Below are positions 4,890-60,669 of a DNA stretch of 64,000 bases, in pieces. The stretch covers positions 1 through 64,000 of the forward strand of contig DAIDGW010000147.1 of assembly GCA_027452245.1 (NCBI GenBank), in the 5' to 3' direction. Position 1 is the stretch's first letter, and the number at the start of each line of letters is the position of its first letter. A program made the translations under genes and the position numbers. The notes under the pieces were generated by a model. It was not told the DNA's origin and searched no databases. It worked only from the letters and a program-made list of their open reading frames with translations. This DNA comes from Acidobacteriaceae bacterium (lineage in GTDB: Bacteria > Acidobacteriota > Terriglobia > Terriglobales > Acidobacteriaceae).

Positions 4890-5344
4890 GGCACGTAGGA
4901 TACACGTCTCTATCGCCGGCGAGAATTGACGGCCGCGGGTCGGCGGTTTCCCTCAATACGAGCTAAGTTATTGATTTTTCGTGCAGGCAAGAGCGGGAAC
5001 GCCGCAGGTTAAAGATGCCACCGAGACAGCAGGCCTATAACCCTTTTAATATCAAATAGTTAACATGTATTCGCCGCCATGCCGACAGGCTGATCGGAAT
5101 TTTCCAACGCCAAGCCTCCATAAAATGCCCATTGCGACGCATTAGAAGCCATTAGAGCGACGCGTGACCCTGCGGACAGCCTCAGTCCGGCGGCAGGATT
5201 TCCACAGCCTTAAATCGCACTACAGGCGAAAATTATCTTATAGCTATAAAATGGGCCTTTATTTCCCATTTTGGGAATTTGCCCAGCTTTCAGCTATACC
5301 GGCGGCGGATTTTCCCAATTTGGGAATCCGCCGCCACGCTGCAC
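4890..5344. other. Intergenic gap with repeated palindromes
   Basis: No gene is evident in this 455-base gap. It is AT-richer than its surroundings and contains a perfect 12-bp palindrome TTATAGCTATAA (5238-5249), and two copies of a TTCCCA-n-TTTGGGAA palindrome (about 5266-5280 and 5312-5326). The second copy is nested in the hairpin listed separately. Confidence 0.5.
5301..5335 (-). terminator. GC-rich hairpin after the first TolC-like gene
   Basis: An 11-bp perfect stem (GGCGGCGGATT with AATCCGCCGCC) encloses TTCCC..GGGAA inner symmetry. It begins nine bases past the stop of the leftward gene ending at 5345. No T run follows, so termination would have to be rho-independent without a U tract, or the hairpin may protect the mRNA 3' end. 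Confidence 0.5.
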
Positions 5345-7450
5345 TCATTCCTGTCCCGCCGGCGGACCTCCCGCATTATCGCCGAGCGGCTGCAAATCCT
5401 TTCGCGGCGCGACGTAAGGCACGGTGGGCAATTGCGTGACCTGTCCCTTGACGGCCTCGTCGATGCTGATGCCTTCGTGATCGAGCAGTAATCCGGTGGC
5501 GCGATCGAGTTCGATGCGCGACTTCTCGTATGCCGCTTTGGCCGATACGAGATTCGATTCGGCTGTGGTCAGGGCGGAGGCGGCCTGCAGGACTGTAACC
5601 TGCGTCATGAGCCCGACTTTCAGTTGCTGCTGATCGGCGTCGAAGGTCTGCTTGGCGAAATCGTAGGCCGATTGCGCGGCTTCCACGGCGACGCGGTTCT
5701 GGCCGACATCGAACTGCGCGTTGCGGACTTCGATGCGCACCTGGTTTTCGAGCTGGTGTTCGCGTACCTGCGCCTGGCTGTATTCGAGTTGCGCGCGTAC
5801 TTGTTGAGATTGCGCAAGGCGATTGCGGATGGGAATGCTGAGCGTCAGTCCGACGCCTTTGTCGGGAGCGGTCGAATTCACCAGCTGGTTCAGCGTTCCG
5901 CCATAGCCGACGGAGGTGGTGTTGCGGAACGGCGGCGGAGCCTTGGCTGGGTTGTAACAGGGAATGCCGGCGAACGCGCACGCGGGGTTAACATCGCCGC
6001 CGACACCGGAACCTCCGTAGTAGGCGAACGCGGAGAGCGTGGGCAGCAGGGCGTTGCGCACCGCTTTGTTGTTGATTTGGCGGCTGTTGAGATCGATGCG
6101 CGACTCCACCAGTTCGGCGCGGTGACGCAGCGCCTCATTGATCAGGTCCTGGGTGGGCGTGGGCGACTCATTCTGCGGAAGCTGCATGGTGGAGGTGGGA
6201 ATCACATCCGCGTCGGCGAGCATGGGATCTTCCATGCTGCGGCTGAGGGCGTTCTTCATCAGCAACTGCTCGAGGCGAAGATTGTTTTCCGCCAGGATGA
6301 GATTCTGCTGATTGGTGGCAACGACGCTCTTGGCGCTGACCACCTGAATGGGGGGGACGGTTCCCACTTTCGCCTGACGGGTGGCGTCCTCCAGCGCTTT
6401 TTGCGAGTACGCCATGGACTCCTTCTGCACGCGTACGTTCTCGTAGGCGTAGACGAGATCCCAATACATGTTCTCGATCTGGTCGACGGTGGTAATGACT
6501 TGCAGGCGGAAGGCGACGTCGGTGATCTCGCGGTTGTTTTTAGCGAAGCGGATGAAACGCGTATTGGGCAGGAAACCGAAACCCTGCAGAATGTTTTGCG
6601 TGAAGCGGAACTGGAAGTTGGAGCCGAGCTGGGGGGTGAACAGGTCGGTGGTGTTATTGCTGCTCAGGTGAGTATTGTTGAAGGTACCGCTGAGGATTCC
6701 GCCCCACTGGAAGCCCTGTGTGTAACCGAAATCGGCGGTATAGGTATTTTCCGCGAGCACCGGGACCGGGCTGAAAGGGCTGGTGGATTCGATCTGGTTC
6801 TTGTCGAGTTGGAGGTTGCTGGTGAGCAGGGGATCGAAGCTGGTGATGGGAGATCCGCTGCCCAGCGTGGAACTGACCAAGCCATTGGTACCCGTGCCGG
6901 CGCCGCTGGCAGCGATGGTGGTGCCTCCGGTACCGGAACCGACGGTGCTGCCCAGTCCACCGATGCCCCCGCCGGGAGTGTTCTGCACAATGCCGGCGTT
7001 GGTGCCGAGAATGCTGGCTCCGGACTTGGCGCGAAGAATGTCGGTGTCGGCGATATTGAGGTTATAGCGCGCGATTTCGATGTCGAGATTGTTTTCCAGC
7101 GCCAGGGCAACCGCGTCGTCGATGGAGAGATAGATTCTGCCATCGTGCATGAGTTGATCGATGCGCGGCGAATTTCCCAGGTTGGGGGGCGGAACCTCAC
7201 GCGAGATGTAGGGCCGCAGGAAATGGGGGAAGGCAGAACGCGAACGGGCATAGTCCTGCAGATGGACGGCCTCGCGCGAAACCGGCTGGGGCGCTACAGG
7301 CATGTCTATGACGGTTTGCGCCTGCGCAGACGGCGGCGGATTCTGCTGCGCGACTCCGGCAGAAACGAAACAGAGCAGCAACAGGATCACAATCAGCAAA
7401 AACCAAGGCGAAGACTTTGGGACCGCGAAGCGCGGCGATAGGCAAGACAT
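5345..7450 (-). CDS. TolC-family outer-membrane efflux protein (paralogue A)
   Basis: I place the start at the ATG at 7450, which has GAGGAG seven bases upstream; the frame is open for 31 further codons but without a ribosome-binding site. The N-terminus is a signal peptide (hydrophobic LLIVILLLLCFVSAGVAQ). Two tandem outer-membrane-efflux repeats follow, with the hallmark 'ALENNLDIEIARYNLNIADTD' type helix near residue 120 and the later 'KAAYEKSRIELDRATG' type helix near the C-terminus. A long Gly/Ser/Thr-rich insertion (about residues 150-210) interrupts the first repeat. Such proteins form the trimeric outer-membrane channel of type I secretion and RND pumps. The C-terminus is Pro/Gly-rich. 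Neither an RND pump nor a membrane fusion protein lies nearby. Confidence 0.85.
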   Translation of the reverse strand: MSCLSPRFAVPKSSPWFLLIVILLLLCFVSAGVAQQNPPPSAQAQTVIDMPVAPQPVSREAVHLQDYARSRSAFPHFLRPYISREVPPPNLGNSPRIDQLMHDGRIYLSIDDAVALALENNLDIEIARYNLNIADTDILRAKSGASILGTNAGIVQNTPGGGIGGLGSTVGSGTGGTTIAASGAGTGTNGLVSSTLGSGSPITSFDPLLTSNLQLDKNQIESTSPFSPVPVLAENTYTADFGYTQGFQWGGILSGTFNNTHLSSNNTTDLFTPQLGSNFQFRFTQNILQGFGFLPNTRFIRFAKNNREITDVAFRLQVITTVDQIENMYWDLVYAYENVRVQKESMAYSQKALEDATRQAKVGTVPPIQVVSAKSVVATNQQNLILAENNLRLEQLLMKNALSRSMEDPMLADADVIPTSTMQLPQNESPTPTQDLINEALRHRAELVESRIDLNSRQINNKAVRNALLPTLSAFAYYGGSGVGGDVNPACAFAGIPCYNPAKAPPPFRNTTSVGYGGTLNQLVNSTAPDKGVGLTLSIPIRNRLAQSQQVRAQLEYSQAQVREHQLENQVRIEVRNAQFDVGQNRVAVEAAQSAYDFAKQTFDADQQQLKVGLMTQVTVLQAASALTTAESNLVSAKAAYEKSRIELDRATGLLLDHEGISIDEAVKGQVTQLPTVPYVAPRKDLQPLGDNAGGPPAGQE

Positions 7451-55127: not shown

Positions 55128-55589
55128 CTAGGCGACCTTCTTGATAGTCCCAGAGGTAGAAAACACCCCTTCAAAGGTCACGAAATAGGTTTCGACCTCT
55201 ATCCCGGGAAAACGGGCGCGCACTAGCTCGGCGGCGCGCTGCAGCTCCTGTCGATGGTGCTCGGCTTCGCGTTGGCGATTTCCGCCAAAGGCAGCAAGCC
55301 CTCCGTAAGTGGCACAATCGGAGTGGCTCATCAGGATGGCGCGGGTAGTTTTATGGAGCAGGATGGACATGCGCAGTTGCTCGAGGATGAAATCGCGTTC
55401 GAAGTCATTGCGCGGTGAGGCTAGGGTCTTGGCACCTCCAGCGACAACGACCATATCCGGGTGCAGGATCTCGCGACGGCTCAGGAATTTCTGCACGGCG
55501 TGCCGAATGCGCTCGTCGAAACAACAGAGCACCGCTGCATCGGCGGTGTAGGCGTCGGGCGAAGAGTCGAAATCAAAAACTTTTTCCAT
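55128..55589 (-). CDS. Carbonic-anhydrase-like protein
   Basis: A beta-carbonic-anhydrase-like pattern is visible: VLCCFDERIRHA with the first Cys and the Asp-Arg pair, VVVAGGAKTL, and MSHSDCATYGGL with the His and second Cys as zinc ligands. Real beta-CAs usually exceed 200 residues, so this 153-residue protein is short and may have lost or changed the carbonate activity. I placed the start at ATG 55589. The neighbours do not point to a pathway. Confidence 0.7.
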   Translation of the reverse strand: MEKVFDFDSSPDAYTADAAVLCCFDERIRHAVQKFLSRREILHPDMVVVAGGAKTLASPRNDFERDFILEQLRMSILLHKTTRAILMSHSDCATYGGLAAFGGNRQREAEHHRQELQRAAELVRARFPGIEVETYFVTFEGVFSTSGTIKKVA

Positions 55590-55731
55590 CAGCAAGAGAA
55601 TACCCGATGTCGCGATTCGCGTGCGAGCCAGAGTCCAACTCTGGAATATTGGCTCACAGTCCTGCCCGCCATCGCCTGTCAAGGGCCGCAACCGGGAGCA
55701 TAAACCCGAAGCAAACTACCCTATATATTGA

Positions 55732-56391
55732 TCAGGCTCCCCGCTTCGCCTTCAATTCGGCCAGCAATTGCTCGATGCGATCGTGTTTATCGAGGGCGGC
55801 TAGGCGCTCCTCGATGTTGTCGGCAGCGAGTTCGGATTTGGCCTGGCTCAAGGCTTCCGCGTGCGCTGCCTTGTTCTTCATGCGATCGAAGGTGGTAGAC
55901 TTCGCGTTGTCGCCGATCGCTATGCGGGCGTCACTCGCCTTATTGACGGCCCGTGCACGGCGATGTTGTGCGATGAGCAAATCGGCTTTCGCTTGCGCTT
56001 CAGTCAGCTTCTGTTCAAGGTTGCGCAAAGCCAATTTCAGATTTTCCACCTGCGCCTTCTGGTCGACGGACTGCTGGGCAAAACTCTCGCTCAGGTCCCG
56101 ATAGCTTTCAACGCGCTGCAACGATGCGCGCGCAAGATCGTCCTCTTTCTTGTCGACCGCCAGTTCGGCCTTGCGCATCCACTCGGCGATCTTGCTCTCG
56201 TTTTCCTTCTGCTTTTTTTCCAGCAGGTGCTGATCGGCGATAGCAATCGCGACCTGAGTCTTGACCTGCAGAAGCTGGTTCTGCATGTCGAGGATCACCT
56301 GCTTGATCATCTTGTCCGGATCTTCGGCCTTATCGATCAGATCATTGAGGTTGGCCCGGACTAACGTTGCGACTCGCTCTAGTAGTGCCAT
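55732..56391 (-). CDS. pspA: Phage-shock protein A (PspA/IM30)
   Basis: The 219-residue protein is the long coiled-coil of the PspA/IM30 family: ALLERVATLVRANLNDLIDKAEDPDKMIKQVILDMQ is the canonical N-terminus with the amphipathic helix that binds membranes, followed by heptad-rich helices to the end. It polymerises on damaged membranes and limits proton leak. AAAGGAG stands six bases before the start. It is the last gene of a leftward cluster with an XRE regulator and flotillin, consistent with a membrane-stress response. Confidence 0.95.
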   Translation of the reverse strand: MALLERVATLVRANLNDLIDKAEDPDKMIKQVILDMQNQLLQVKTQVAIAIADQHLLEKKQKENESKIAEWMRKAELAVDKKEDDLARASLQRVESYRDLSESFAQQSVDQKAQVENLKLALRNLEQKLTEAQAKADLLIAQHRRARAVNKASDARIAIGDNAKSTTFDRMKNKAAHAEALSQAKSELAADNIEERLAALDKHDRIEQLLAELKAKRGA

Positions 56392-56493: not shown

Positions 56494-56730
56494 TCATTTC
56501 AACTTTCCATGTATGCGTTGCAGAGCTTGGCATTGCGGGCATGCGTTCCTTTTGGGACTCCAGGTGCTGCCGATGGCTACCCCGATGGCAATGCCGAGCG
56601 TCAACCAGATGGCGATGTGCCCGGCCATCACGCCGGCCACCGCGCCCAGAGCGGCTCCAAACGCAAGACCGAGACCGGTGCCTTTCGGCTTTGTGCTTGC
56701 ATTCTCGGTCGTCGGCGTCTTCTCGGACAT
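56494..56730 (-). CDS. Glycine-zipper membrane protein
   Basis: The start at 56730 follows GGAG. Two hydrophobic helices with small-residue packing (GLGLAFGAALGAVAGVMAG and LTLGIAIGVAIG) form a glycine-zipper hairpin; a CPQCQ pair and a basic tail lie at the end. Such proteins often help form oligomers or pores. Position between flotillin and pspA supports a role in the same membrane-stress complex. Confidence 0.7.
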   Translation of the reverse strand: MSEKTPTTENASTKPKGTGLGLAFGAALGAVAGVMAGHIAIWLTLGIAIGVAIGSTWSPKRNACPQCQALQRIHGKLK

Positions 56731-56831
56731 CGCATGCTCCACTGCTGCTGTTGCCAACATCGCCTTGCTCCCATTTCGAGATTCCCATGTCTCGCAACCT
56801 CGGCGAGACATGGGGCATTCCAGTTCGTTTA

Positions 56832-58271
56832 TCAATCGCCATTCACCAGGGGAGGCTTGGGAGCCTTATCGCCGATCTGGCGGACTTTGCCGAGCAGTTC
56901 ACCCAGAGGCATGCCCGAGAGCGTCTCAAACAGTGCCGGAACTTGCGCAGCCATTTTGGTAATGTCTCCGGTGATCTTGTTCATCCCGGCAGCATCGCCG
57001 TTTCCGGTCGACACGATCGTGATCTTATCGACATTTGCCAGCGGGCTGGCCAATGCTTTCACTACTTCCGGCAATCCAGTCAGCAGTTTGTCGACGACCG
57101 CAGCCTGGTTGTATTCCTGATAGGCCTCGGCTTTCACGTTCATCGCTTTGGCTTCCGCCTCGCCTTTCTTGAAGATGATCTCGGCTTCGGCTTCTCCCTG
57201 AGCGCGGATCGAGGAAGCGTGCCCCTCGGCTTCGACCATCAGACGCTGCTTTTCGGCAGCAGCGAGGGTTTCGATGCGCTGACGCTCGACCTCGGCCTGC
57301 TTCAACACGGTTGCGATCAGTTCTTTCTCGCGGCGATTGATCTCGGCTTCCTGCACCTTGACCTGTTGCTCTTTCTCGACCTGCTGCACCTTCACCTGTT
57401 CGGCGACAACCTGCTGCTGCATGATATTGGTCTGGATGTCATACGCCTTGTCGGCCTGTGCCTGCTGCCGCTTGGTGACTTCCTGGTACTGCGCTTTCTT
57501 GACTTCGAGATCGCGCTGCGCTTCGGCCTGTTTGGCAAGCGACGCAGTCTCGGCTGCAACCCGCTCCTGGTCGGCCTGGGCTTTCGCGACAGCCGCTTCC
57601 CGCTGCGCCAGCGCGCGCTTAATCGCCGTATCACGATCGGCTTCGGCAGCGGCCACATCGGCATCGCGCTTGATGCGGGCGACGTCGGGGCGTCCCATGT
57701 TGGTGATGTATTCGTTTTTGTCGCGGACTTCTTTGATCGTGAAGGAGATGACTTCCAGACCCATCTTGTTCATGTCGTCAGCGCAAGTGGAACGCATGCG
57801 ATCAGAAACCATCTCCGGTTGCTTAACGATCTCTTCGACCGTCAACTGTCCGATGATGCCGCGCAAGTGACCTTCCATCACCAGGCGGATCAGGCCTTGG
57901 CGCTCGTCGTCGGTCTTGGTAAGGAACTGCTCCGACGCGGTGAGAATCGATTCTGTGTCGGACTTCACCTTGATCTGCGCGACGGCCTCCACGGTCACCG
58001 CGACGCCTTGCTTAGTGTAAAGATCCTGCTGCGGAGCCACATCAAACGACATTAGCTCGAGCGAAAGTTCGCGGCAGACTTGCACCATGGGGAAGACCAT
58101 CGTGCCGTGTCCTTTGACCACACGAGTTCCGCCAAAGCCGTACACGATGAGTGCTTCATGCGGCCCGGCCTTGCGGTACAGCCTGGCCATGGTGCTGATG
58201 AGAAACAGAATCGCCATCAACCCCAAGCCAATCACGATCCAGATTTCAACAACGGTTGGTACTTGCAACAT
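56832..58271 (-). CDS. Flotillin (SPFH-domain protein)
   Basis: A hydrophobic N-terminal hairpin (residues 7-30) anchors the protein, followed by an SPFH domain (AGPHEALIVYGFGG, FPMVQVCRELSLELMSFDVAPQ) and a long alanine/glutamate-rich coiled coil (about 205-395, with EAEADRDTAIKRALAQREAAVA). The 479 residues and the GEAEAEAKAMNVKAEAYQ region match YuaG/FloT. It forms scaffolds in specific membrane domains. GGAGG stands before the ATG. It lies in the same direction as a NfeD-like partner, DUF1648 and pspA. Confidence 0.93.
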   Translation of the reverse strand: MLQVPTVVEIWIVIGLGLMAILFLISTMARLYRKAGPHEALIVYGFGGTRVVKGHGTMVFPMVQVCRELSLELMSFDVAPQQDLYTKQGVAVTVEAVAQIKVKSDTESILTASEQFLTKTDDERQGLIRLVMEGHLRGIIGQLTVEEIVKQPEMVSDRMRSTCADDMNKMGLEVISFTIKEVRDKNEYITNMGRPDVARIKRDADVAAAEADRDTAIKRALAQREAAVAKAQADQERVAAETASLAKQAEAQRDLEVKKAQYQEVTKRQQAQADKAYDIQTNIMQQQVVAEQVKVQQVEKEQQVKVQEAEINRREKELIATVLKQAEVERQRIETLAAAEKQRLMVEAEGHASSIRAQGEAEAEIIFKKGEAEAKAMNVKAEAYQEYNQAAVVDKLLTGLPEVVKALASPLANVDKITIVSTGNGDAAGMNKITGDITKMAAQVPALFETLSGMPLGELLGKVRQIGDKAPKPPLVNGD

Positions 58272-58347: not shown

Positions 58348-58749
58348 TCAGCGTCGCAAGGCTTCTGTTGTGACAAGGCACGACGAGGCTTGCGGTGGAT
58401 GGTCGAGGTTATAACGGAGCACCCAATGGTGCAATCCGCAGACGAATGCCAGCACCGCATAAAAGAAGACGAGCAACCCCCACGACATCAACTCAGTGGC
58501 CGCACGAGGCCCTGGCGAGCGGCGCACGAGGAAGCTGATCACGGTGAAGACCACCAGCATGAAAAGAACAACGAGCACCGAGAAATCAACCGAACTTTCG
58601 CGCGTAGTCCAGCCGTTGGGATTCCAGTTGGCATCAAAGTGCACCGCCATGCGGTGCGGCAGACGATCCCACACCAGCCACGAATCGAGAAAGGTGACGG
58701 GAAGCACCAGCCACATCAGCAGAGTCGCCCATGCGTAACGCGTCTTCAT
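58348..58749 (-). CDS. DUF1648 membrane protein
   Basis: Four hydrophobic segments in 133 residues and the LPHRMAVHFDANWNPNGW segment identify DUF1648, found in bacterial membrane proteins of unknown role. The ATG at 58749 is seven bases from the upstream NfeD stop. GGGAGAG is present upstream. It belongs to the flotillin operon. Confidence 0.82.
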   Translation of the reverse strand: MKTRYAWATLLMWLVLPVTFLDSWLVWDRLPHRMAVHFDANWNPNGWTTRESSVDFSVLVVLFMLVVFTVISFLVRRSPGPRAATELMSWGLLVFFYAVLAFVCGLHHWVLRYNLDHPPQASSCLVTTEALRR

Positions 58750-58755
58750 TCGTAG

Positions 58756-59388
58756 TCACTCTCCCTCTGATAAATCACTCCATAGCCGCACATACGCCAG
58801 GCCGCGCTCATAACGTGTGACGACCACTTCGCTGCCCTTGGGGATGGCCTTGCCGTCATCACTGCGAGCACCGCAGACGCGGCGAGTTCCCATCTGCGAG
58901 TACAACAACTCGCCCGTGCCACCTTCGCGGATGGGGCTGCAGATCGAACCCAGCACTCCGACCATCTCGTAATCGGCAGGGTCCATGAATTCTTCTCGCG
59001 AAATCAGGACTTTGCTCATGAACAAGAACACAATCCCGCCGCCGACCAGGCCGACGCAGATGGATACGATGAGTTCGAAACCTACCCACAGGCTCGAGTA
59101 CCGCGTCAGCAGAAACCCTGCCCCGCCAAACCAGGCAATGAACGCCATAAAGCTCATGAAATTGAAGGGCGAGATTTCCCCAGCCTGGCCGCGAACCGCA
59201 CCGCGAGCGCCAGTACCATGCTGTCCGATGCCAGCATGGACGTGCGCCCCGACATGGCCGTGCAGATGCGGCGGATGCATCCGATGCCCAATGCGGAAGC
59301 TTCCAAAGACAAAAGACAGGAAGCTGAAGCAAAAGCCAACTGCGAAGCAGACCAGATAGAAATCCGCCCAGGTAAACAGGTGAGTCAT
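58756..59388 (-). CDS. NfeD-like membrane protein with OB fold
   Basis: Three or four hydrophobic segments (about 10-28, 70-95, 97-125) precede a C-terminal OB fold with GVLGSICSPIREGGTGELLY and VVVTRYERGLAYVRLWSDL, the NfeD/YuaF signature. Such proteins pair with flotillin. A His-rich loop (HLHGHVGAHVHAGIGQHG, about 40-57) between the first and second helices is unusual and could bind a metal. The start overlaps the XRE stop by ATGA. Confidence 0.85.
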   Translation of the reverse strand: MTHLFTWADFYLVCFAVGFCFSFLSFVFGSFRIGHRMHPPHLHGHVGAHVHAGIGQHGTGARGAVRGQAGEISPFNFMSFMAFIAWFGGAGFLLTRYSSLWVGFELIVSICVGLVGGGIVFLFMSKVLISREEFMDPADYEMVGVLGSICSPIREGGTGELLYSQMGTRRVCGARSDDGKAIPKGSEVVVTRYERGLAYVRLWSDLSEGE

Positions 59389-59888
59389 CGAATTCGCCTC
59401 CCCTCCCCAGTGCGTCGACTGCTTTCCGGCTGCAAGGCTTCAAACAGGCGGTCCGCTAGTCCAGGAGTTTCCAGAATCGCACCAAGAAGCAGCAGGCAAC
59501 GGCGCGTGTCCTTTTCTCGCGCGCACTTGATCAGCACATTGCTCAACTCCGGATCGCTGGCGAAACGCTCTGACCCTTGCAGAAGCCAGACATCGAGCTT
59601 GCCTTCCGTAGTGCGAAGATCGGAGGTTAATTCCGTTTGGTAGCCTTCCGGATCGTCTACCAGAAATCCCGGATGCACCTTGAAAAACTTTGCGAGTAGA
59701 GCTCGCGAGGACTGCGTCATGTGCGGCCGCGATCCACTTTCGATTTGGGACAGGTACGACTGACTGATGCTCTTGCCCAACTCCTTCTTGATTGCGGCAA
59801 CGATTTCCAGCTGTGTCATGGGACGCCCCAGTCCCCGAAGAGACCCCTCGACTTCGCGCAAATACCGGATTTTCTCGCTCAATTTCAT
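59385..59888 (-). CDS. XRE-family transcriptional regulator of the flotillin/PspA cluster
   Basis: A helix-turn-helix of the Xre type occupies about residues 5-75 (LREVEGSLRG, MTQLEIVAAIKKELG and SQSYLSQIESGSRPH). A dimerisation or ligand part follows with LDVWLLQGSERF. As the first gene of the leftward operon it probably regulates itself: the promoter in front has its -10 inside a perfect inverted repeat. It lies about 10 bases downstream of the predicted transcription start, so the leader is very short. Confidence 0.85.
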   Translation of the reverse strand: MKLSEKIRYLREVEGSLRGLGRPMTQLEIVAAIKKELGKSISQSYLSQIESGSRPHMTQSSRALLAKFFKVHPGFLVDDPEGYQTELTSDLRTTEGKLDVWLLQGSERFASDPELSNVLIKCAREKDTRRCLLLLGAILETPGLADRLFEALQPESSRRTGEGRRIR

Positions 59889-59895
59889 ATCTCAG

Positions 59896-59934
59896 ATTGC
59901 AATAGTTATATTGCAATATGTAATTATATGTCAA
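59896..59934 (-). promoter_or_regulatory. Promoter and operator of the flotillin/PspA operon
   Basis: Read leftward, TTGACA (59934-59929) and TATAAC (59910-59905) are separated by 18 bases. The -10 is embedded in an exact inverted repeat with nine-base arms (ATTGCAATA and TATTGCAAT, spacer four bases; 59896-59917). The symmetric site fits binding by the dimeric XRE regulator encoded immediately downstream and would block polymerase. The start would be near 59898, so the leader is about ten bases. Confidence 0.75.
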
Positions 59935-60213: not shown

Positions 60214-60669
60214 ATGAGATTCACGGACACGGTGCACACAATTTTGCACAAAAAGGAAAACAGCCGAGTACTTTCGATCCGGCCTGAGCAGTCGGTCTAC
60301 GAGGCTATTGAAAAGATGGCAATCGAAGGAGTGGGCGCGTTGTTGGTGATCTCCGACGGCACACTCCTAGGCATCATGTCCGAGAGGGATTACGCTCGCA
60401 AAGTGATTCTGAAAGGGCGCTCCTCAAAGGAGACAGCGGTGAGCGAGATCATGAGTTCGCCTGTATTTAGCGTAACTCCGAAACACACTATTGATGAGTG
60501 CATGAGCATGATGACGAGCGGTCGCTTTCGGCACCTTCCTGTGGTGCATGAAAATGGTGATGTGATGGGCATCGTGTCCATGGGCGATTTGGTGAAATGG
60601 GTGATTTCGGGACAGGCTCAGCACATTGAGGAGTTGGAGGGCTACATCGCCGGGGACTACCCGAGATGA
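60214..60669 (+). CDS. Two-CBS-domain protein
   Basis: The 151-residue product has two CBS repeats: [28 protein letters not shown] and [33 protein letters not shown] pairs bind adenine nucleotides and sense energy status. The ATG at 60214 has GAGGGG seven bases upstream; an upstream extension lacks family support. The gene is monocistronic. Similar single-domain CBS proteins in other bacteria have unknown partners. Confidence 0.9.

What the first reader, a model, noticed from the sequence alone, without database searches (positions are those of the whole stretch)
59896..59934. Autoregulatory operator in front of the XRE-flotillin-PspA operon
The -10 hexamer lies inside a perfect 22-bp inverted repeat, directly upstream of the XRE gene that begins the operon. 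The combination of XRE, NfeD with a His-rich loop, DUF1648, flotillin, glycine-zipper and PspA in one leftward cluster suggests a membrane-stress module under a dedicated repressor. I do not know of a described system with exactly this gene set.
Basis: partly seen in the sequence, partly recalled or inferred. Interest (0 to 1): 0.65.

Follow-up and report, generated by a model that had tools for sequence, protein, structure and literature searches.

The report
Self-controlling switch of acidobacterial membrane-stress operon
A small DNA-binding protein that begins a membrane-protection operon in soil Acidobacteria has a large, strongly conserved double-palindrome landing site built into its own promoter, so it most likely switches its own operon (flotillin, NfeD, PspA) off until the membrane is stressed.

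Summary
The repeat is real, and is the inner part of something larger. They lie in a 36-bp operator (59889-59924, minus strand): two 15-bp palindromes (ATYGCAA-N-TTGCRAT), centres 21 bp apart, built into a sigma-70-type promoter and ending at the XRE start codon. Each of 81 sources (window and 80 relatives) has exactly one site above 15 bits, none elsewhere in 862 kb. Among 299 genomes of the class the operator model finds 80 of 111 with the regulator and 0 of 188 without; 30 of the other 31 have it below threshold or with a longer centre. The HTH is EspR-like; XRE-NfeD-flotillin-PspA order is kept in 51 of 51 long loci. Best reading: autorepression by two cooperating dimers. A few relatives carry the operator before a second pspA operon. 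The core gene set was already reported for Acidobacteriota (Popp 2022, PMC9239133), so this is a new variant of a known kind; my searches found no report of the operator. Binding, repression and signal are inferred.

The parts
59929..59934 (-). -35 hexamer TTGACA
   Evidence: TTGAC within 14 nt upstream of the operator in 71 of 81 sources, spacer to the -10 17 nt in 45 and 18 nt in 16 of these 71
59905..59910 (-). -10 hexamer TATAAC, operator positions 15-20
   Evidence: TATAAA in 29, TATAAC in 9 of 81
59889..59924 (-). 36-bp operator: two 15-bp palindromes in tandem with a 6-bp AT-rich linker; also a dyad as a whole
59910..59924 (-). palindrome 1 (ATTACATATTGCAAT), in the -35/-10 spacer
   Evidence: 5 of 7 pairs match in the window, mean 5.2 of 7 over 81
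59889..59903 (-). palindrome 2 (ATTGCAATCTGAGAT), over the predicted transcription start up to the start codon
   Evidence: 4 of 7 pairs match in the window, mean 4.4 of 7 over 81; the transcription start is predicted by position only
59385..59888 (-). XRE-type regulator, 167 aa; EspR-like HTH (1-84), low-confidence linker, C-terminal helical domain (94-158)
58756..59388 (-). NfeD protein of the YuaF type, 210 aa, His-rich TM1-TM2 loop; start overlaps the XRE stop by 4 nt
58348..58749 (-). DUF1648 membrane protein, 133 aa (13 of 26 homologues found at this place are 275-311 aa)
56832..58271 (-). flotillin (SPFH/Band 7 + Flot), 479 aa from the start chosen here (the open frame begins at 58460)
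56494..56835 (-). small glycine-zipper protein; the listed TTG start may be too early; library matches only weak and below cut-off
55732..56391 (-). PspA/IM30 protein, 219 aa

Best explanation
The XRE protein is a dedicated autorepressor of the XRE-NfeD-(DUF1648)-flotillin-(glycine zipper)-PspA operon. A dimer binds each of the two 15-bp palindromes; the sites lie 21 bp (two helical turns) apart on one face of the DNA, so two dimers can bind cooperatively. Site 1 fills the -35/-10 spacer, site 2 covers the predicted transcription start and runs to the start codon, and the -10 lies at the end of site 1 and in the linker between the sites, so occupation shuts out RNA polymerase. Low occupancy, or a stress signal that releases the protein, turns the whole operon on and refills the repressor pool. 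Shown here: the element, its architecture, its conservation, its exclusive pairing with the regulator in the genomes scanned, and the operon structure. Inferred: binding by XRE, sign of regulation, cooperativity, transcription start, inducing signal.
For: One operator above 15 bits in each of 81 sources and nowhere else in 862,027 bases (the matrix was trained on these sites; best score in one Markov-simulated copy of each source -0.9 bits, lowest real site 26.9). One place in the own genome. Class scan of 299 genomes: operator in 80, XRE in 111, all 80 within the 111, none in the 188 without (Fisher p 2e-47, but the genomes are related). Of the other 31 XRE genomes, 29 upstream regions were read and all 29 carry the operator, three of them with a 1-bp longer centre; G228 is seen (E 0.0015). 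The three best palindrome centres of the matrix are 8, 18.5 and 29. Promoter spacing fits sigma-70. XRE stop and NfeD start overlap by 4 nt in 63 of 78. The closely related flotillin (E <= 1e-90) is in 110 of the 111 XRE genomes and in none of the 188. EspR, the only confident PDB relative by sequence, is reported to bind TTTGC[TC][GA] and to have a negative effect on its own transcription (PMC3315491); the half-site here is TTGCRAT.
Against: No binding or transcription data. The loci were fetched by similarity to XRE and are related, so counts are not independent. The operator matrix and its hits share training data, and some class-scan genomes are the same as fetched loci (for example G241 and L081). 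In one group of relatives the operator lies 343 nt (G275), 383 nt (L069) or 1989 nt (G241/L081) before the XRE start, which autorepression must span. The weakest standard-matrix site scores only 10.5 bits (L149). In the window the palindromes match in only 5 and 4 of 7 pairs. Ten of 81 sources lack TTGAC at the -35. An activator role is not excluded by position alone.
Confidence: 0.75

Rival explanations
1. XRE binds the operator but acts as an activator or dual regulator, or as an EspR-like architectural protein that coats or loops DNA.
For: The HTH is closest to EspR, described as a nucleoid-associated protein with hundreds of sites (PMC3315491, passages). Displaced operators in one group could suit looping.
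Against: One place found in the 6.2-Mb genome (150 of 1713 first-look candidates scored) and at most three places in any of the 299 genomes at E <= 1e-3 (stricter filters); the sites overlap the -35/-10 spacer, -10 and predicted start, a repressor position.
Confidence: 0.12
2. The palindrome is the site of another, unlinked regulator; XRE works elsewhere.
For: Half-site TTGCRAT is not diagnostic of one family; binding was not tested.
Against: 0 of 188 genomes without XRE have the operator at E <= 1e-3, and it stays with the XRE gene in sources whose flanks are otherwise unalignable.
Confidence: 0.08
3. A chance AT-rich inverted repeat in an ordinary promoter.
For: 53 of 5000 local simulations had 9-bp arms with a spacer of up to 8.
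Against: Conserved element of 42 bits, one in each of 81 sources, with near-random flanks.
Confidence: 0.01

Closest known systems
Acidobacteriota PspA-Band7/FloT-NfeD-HTH neighbourhood (Popp et al. 2022, PMC9239133; sections 8 and 11 and passages read)
   Same: Same phylum and core gene set; HTH regulators in the PspA operons proposed as potential regulators of operon expression.
   Different: In the sections and passages read the regulator is not identified further, and no operator or other target is given. Supplementary data not read.
EspR (Rv3849) of Mycobacterium tuberculosis (PMC3315491; passages and section 9 read)
   Same: HTH domain homologous (E 2e-7; Z 10.9 over 79 residues); TTTGC-type half-sites as an inverted repeat at its own gene; negative effect on its own transcription reported.
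   Different: EspR has hundreds of sites and sits in another gene context; here one or a few compact promoter operators and a flotillin/PspA operon. C-terminal domains could not be matched.
PspA-flotillin-YqiJ/YuaF and CesT/Tir-PspA operons (Ravi et al. 2024, PMC11237479; section 19 and passages read)
   Same: Flotillin, a YuaF-type 3TM protein and PspA in one operon.
   Different: In what was read, no XRE regulator leads these operons; that set has an AAA+ ATPase and a CesT/Tir protein.
Bacillus subtilis pspA-ydjGHI operon (PMC8581546; passages read)
   Same: PspA works with an SPFH protein and membrane partners; envelope stress.
   Different: Controlled by sigma-W, not by an operon-encoded HTH protein.

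Membership tests
XRE/HTH_3 regulators | HTH_3-type domain | tested here: met
   Window protein below the Pfam cut-off (19.2 of 23 bits), but 51 of 59 members of the alignment match HTH_3 at E <= 0.01, and the predicted fold matches Cro/434/P22 repressor domains.
EspR family | EspR-type HTH domain | tested here: met
   The only PDB matches below E 0.1 by sequence; top structural match, other HTH domains about 1 Z unit behind.
EspR family | EspR-type C-terminal dimerisation domain | tested here: inconclusive
   Reliable alignment covers residues 1-84 only; the full-length Foldseek matches have rmsd about 10.
EspR family | nucleoid-associated, hundreds of sites | tested here: inconclusive
   One place in the own genome at E <= 1, but only with the strict 36-bp model and 150 of 1713 candidates scored; looser half-sites were not counted.
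NfeD (YuaF type) | membrane helices plus C-terminal OB domain | tested here: met
   Profile hit to YuaF 2k14, E 3.8e-4; predicted 3 long helices + beta barrel; Foldseek YuaF 5e-6, QmcA-YbbJ 8e-5. Pfam NfeD below cut-off.
Flotillin | SPFH + Flot domains | tested here: met
   Band_7 1.4e-31, Flot 1.7e-8; below the FloT equivalog cut-off.
Psp envelope-stress systems | PspA/IM30 domain | tested here: met
   1.5e-36.
Psp envelope-stress systems | induced by envelope stress | not testable with these tools
   needs expression data
XRE autorepression circuits | palindromic operator overlapping the regulator's own promoter | tested here: met
XRE autorepression circuits | regulator binds and represses | not testable with these tools
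   needs EMSA and reporter assays

The most novel reading that the evidence does not exclude
A membrane-to-promoter circuit: the EspR-type repressor is made in fixed ratio with a His-rich NfeD protein (start and stop overlap by 4 nt), and the NfeD-flotillin-PspA membrane assembly holds or releases the repressor, so the state of the membrane (or a metal at the His-rich loop) sets transcription of the operon and, in some lineages, of a second pspA operon and of carboxypeptidase-regulatory-domain proteins carrying the same operator.
Probability: 0.2. Interest if true: 0.75.

Novelty: new variant of a known kind. Interest (0 to 1): 0.5.

Why it matters
How Psp systems are controlled outside the few studied groups is largely open (my judgement). 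Here is a precise, testable 36-bp promoter-operator with its regulator for a flotillin/PspA operon; the regulator is found in 111 and the flotillin in 110 of 299 sampled genomes of the class. The operator model is a handle to find the regulon. It also gives an EspR-type HTH in soil bacteria with a simple, compact operator.

Tried and rejected
Chance repeat: rejected by conservation, although the local simulation alone would not have done so (53 of 5000). 'Perfect 22-bp palindrome': rejected, 9+4+9. The first matrix run misplaced many sites because the operator reaches the start codon; repeated with 14 nt of coding sequence. The apparent absences L069 and L081 turned out to be displaced sites. 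Apparent absences in 31 XRE genomes were scores below the cut-off or a 1-bp longer centre in the 29 read and G228; G273 was not read. A large EspR-like regulon: not found in the own genome with the strict model. Second pspA operons usually under this operator: no, 4 of 18, within about 1.5 kb upstream, less for one contig. PDB matches beyond the HTH: the VIA rows cover mainly residues 1-83, so nothing is said on the C-terminal fold. A CesT/Tir identity for the small protein before the second PspA: Pfam gave no match; left open. Literature, library of open papers only: PspA + XRE family + operon + repressor + envelope stress, Acidobacteria + flotillin + PspA (this wording misses 'Acidobacteriota') and Acidobacteria + XRE + flotillin found no paper; flotillin + PspA + NfeD + operon found PMC8581546 and PMC9239133, phage shock + flotillin + HTH + neighbourhood + NfeD found PMC9239133, PMC11237479 and PMC10936438 (the last only as a listing), Band 7 + PspA + Acidobacteriota + transcriptional regulator only PMC9239133; EspR + flotillin gave listings of unrelated papers. 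Supplementary data were not read.

Full report
What is in the sequence. On the minus strand upstream of the XRE gene (ATG at 59888) lie TTGACA (59934-59929), an 18-nt spacer and TATAAC (59910-59905). It is two perfect 9-bp arms with a 4-bp spacer. In the AT-rich local composition such arms arise in 53 of 5000 simulated stretches, so its meaning had to come from comparison.

Comparison. A pattern-based search of the genome-contig collection (84,980 species, close relatives only) with the XRE protein confirmed 122 relatives, of which the best 80 were kept; their record titles all name Acidobacteria or Terriglobia groups. Upstream of the gene a 36-bp element is shared, roughly ATYRCAnATTGCRATA-TAAA-TATYGCnATYTGYRAT, 42 bits in all. 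Scanning all 80 loci and the window (862,027 bases) found exactly one site above 15 bits per source, 81 in all. In 78 loci it ends -3 to 34 nt before the start codon, in 37 of them with no gap. In L069 it starts 419 nt and in L081 2025 nt before the XRE start; in the genome of L081 a serine-hydrolase-like ORF of 554 aa lies between. The -80..-31 flank is unalignable (mean pairwise identity 0.27) while the operator keeps 0.71. The matrix was trained on these sites, so the absence of other hits is the informative part.

Architecture. The matrix has three strong palindrome centres, 8, 18.5 and 29: two 15-bp palindromes, ATYGCAA-N-TTGCRAT, centred 21 bp apart, and the dyad of the whole. The pooled half-site is TTGCRAT. 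Half-sites about 10 bp apart within each palindrome are what one HTH dimer would need, and 21 bp puts the two dimers on one face (inference from general knowledge of such repressors). A 1-bp longer centre occurs in L134, L156, L158 and L165. TTGAC precedes the operator in 71 of 81, with a 17-nt (45) or 18-nt (16) spacer in most to the -10 at operator positions 15-20. Occupation would cover the promoter from inside the -35/-10 spacer to the start codon.

Regulator and operon. By sequence the HTH matches only EspR among solved structures at E below 0.1 (2e-7; profile 9e-7), and EspR is also the best structural match (Z 10.9, rmsd 2.5 over 79 residues; model pLDDT 86.5). Other Cro/434-type domains follow within about one Z unit, so the relation is to the EspR-type HTH, not to EspR function. 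XRE-NfeD-flotillin-PspA order is kept in 51 of 51 loci with at least 5 kb downstream; tblastn finds DUF1648 in 22 of 63 and the glycine-zipper gene in 26 of 51. XRE stop and NfeD start overlap by 4 nt in 63 of 78. NfeD is of the YuaF type, although Pfam is below its cut-off. Its TM1-TM2 loop has at least 5 His in 76 of 76 measurable of 78; L008 (cut by the contig end) and L055 were dropped because the anchor motif was not found.

Genome scale. The own genome, 6.23 Mb, has one place (150 of 1713 first-look candidates scored). In 299 genomes of the class (a sample, at least 90% complete) the operator model finds 80 at E <= 1e-3 and the XRE protein 111 at E <= 1e-10; all 80 are among the 111. Of 87 distinct places 77 lie -2 to 84 nt from an XRE start and one more (G243 C342) abuts an XRE start at a contig end; two are displaced (G275 343 nt, G241 1989 nt). 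Of the 31 XRE genomes without a model hit, 29 upstream regions were read: 27 score above 5 bits with the standard matrix (lowest 10.5), and L156 and L158, as well as L134 better, fit with a 1-bp longer centre (background maxima downstream of XRE in the 80 loci -5.6 for the standard and 3.2 for the longer matrix). G228 is seen (E 0.0015); G273 was not read. The closely related flotillin is found in 110 genomes, all within the 111 (G012 is the exception). Genomes are related, so the Fisher value is not a true probability. In a phylum sample 30 of 396 genomes match the XRE profile at E <= 1e-8, six of them outside the class; their upstream regions were not read.

Other sites. Seven of the 87 places lie away from XRE. 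Three (G040 C34, G045 C148, G243 C24) precede a small protein, a second PspA (28-30% identical to the window's) and further genes; G257 adds a fourth with a 1-bp longer centre; 14 other genomes of that family with that PspA show no operator in the stretch held (4 of 18). Three (G045 C53, G297 C431, G265 C201) precede ORFs; the two scanned (G045, G297) have carboxypeptidase-regulatory-like domains, and the third resembles the G297 one by eye. One (G040 C71) lies ambiguously between genes. All seven carry TTGAC at about the -35 spacing. A second PspA under the same operator fits a membrane-stress regulon.

Mechanism. Autorepression by two cooperative dimers is the best reading (0.75). The published EspR case, TTTGC-type half-sites in inverted repeat and a negative effect on its own transcription (PMC3315491, passages and section 9), is a parallel, not a proof. 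The signal is unknown; coupling to NfeD suggests, but does not show, control by the membrane complex.

Known or new. Popp et al. 2022 (PMC9239133; sections 8 and 11 and passages) already report PspA with Band7/FloT, NfeD and HTH regulators in Acidobacteriota, and Ravi et al. 2024 (PMC11237479; section 19 and passages) flotillin-YuaF-PspA operons. In the parts read neither describes an operator. The searches brought up no other report of one. Hence a new variant of a known kind.

Noticed in passing
L123:4048-7745, L126:2790-6218, L121: Second PspA operon with the same operator in a few relatives: small protein without Pfam match, PspA_IM30, then two proteins without Pfam match (scanned in L123); the order recalls the CesT/Tir-PspA dyads of Ravi 2024.
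   Followed up: partly
L124:2307-4109, L128:2325-4022, L129:2228-3910 (minus strands): Operator copies in front of ORFs; the two scanned have carboxypeptidase-regulatory-like domains, the third looks alike.
   Followed up: partly
L161:3587-5251 and 5257-5556: A serine-hydrolase-like gene and a small opposite-strand ORF between operator and XRE in one genome; related ones (L131, L069) have 343-383 nt between them.
   Followed up: partly
58348-58749: DUF1648 protein of 133 aa, whereas 13 of 26 homologues found at the same place are 275-311 aa; may be truncated in the window's lineage.
   Followed up: partly
56494-56835: Small glycine-zipper protein ends in a Cys/His-rich stretch that recurs in several homologues (CPxC...H), possibly metal-binding.
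   Followed up: no
60217-60669: CBS-domain protein (two matched stretches) divergent from the operon.
   Followed up: no
55128-55691: Putative carbonic anhydrase (Pro_CA_2) after PspA; a homologue is found downstream in 7 of 44 long loci.
   Followed up: partly
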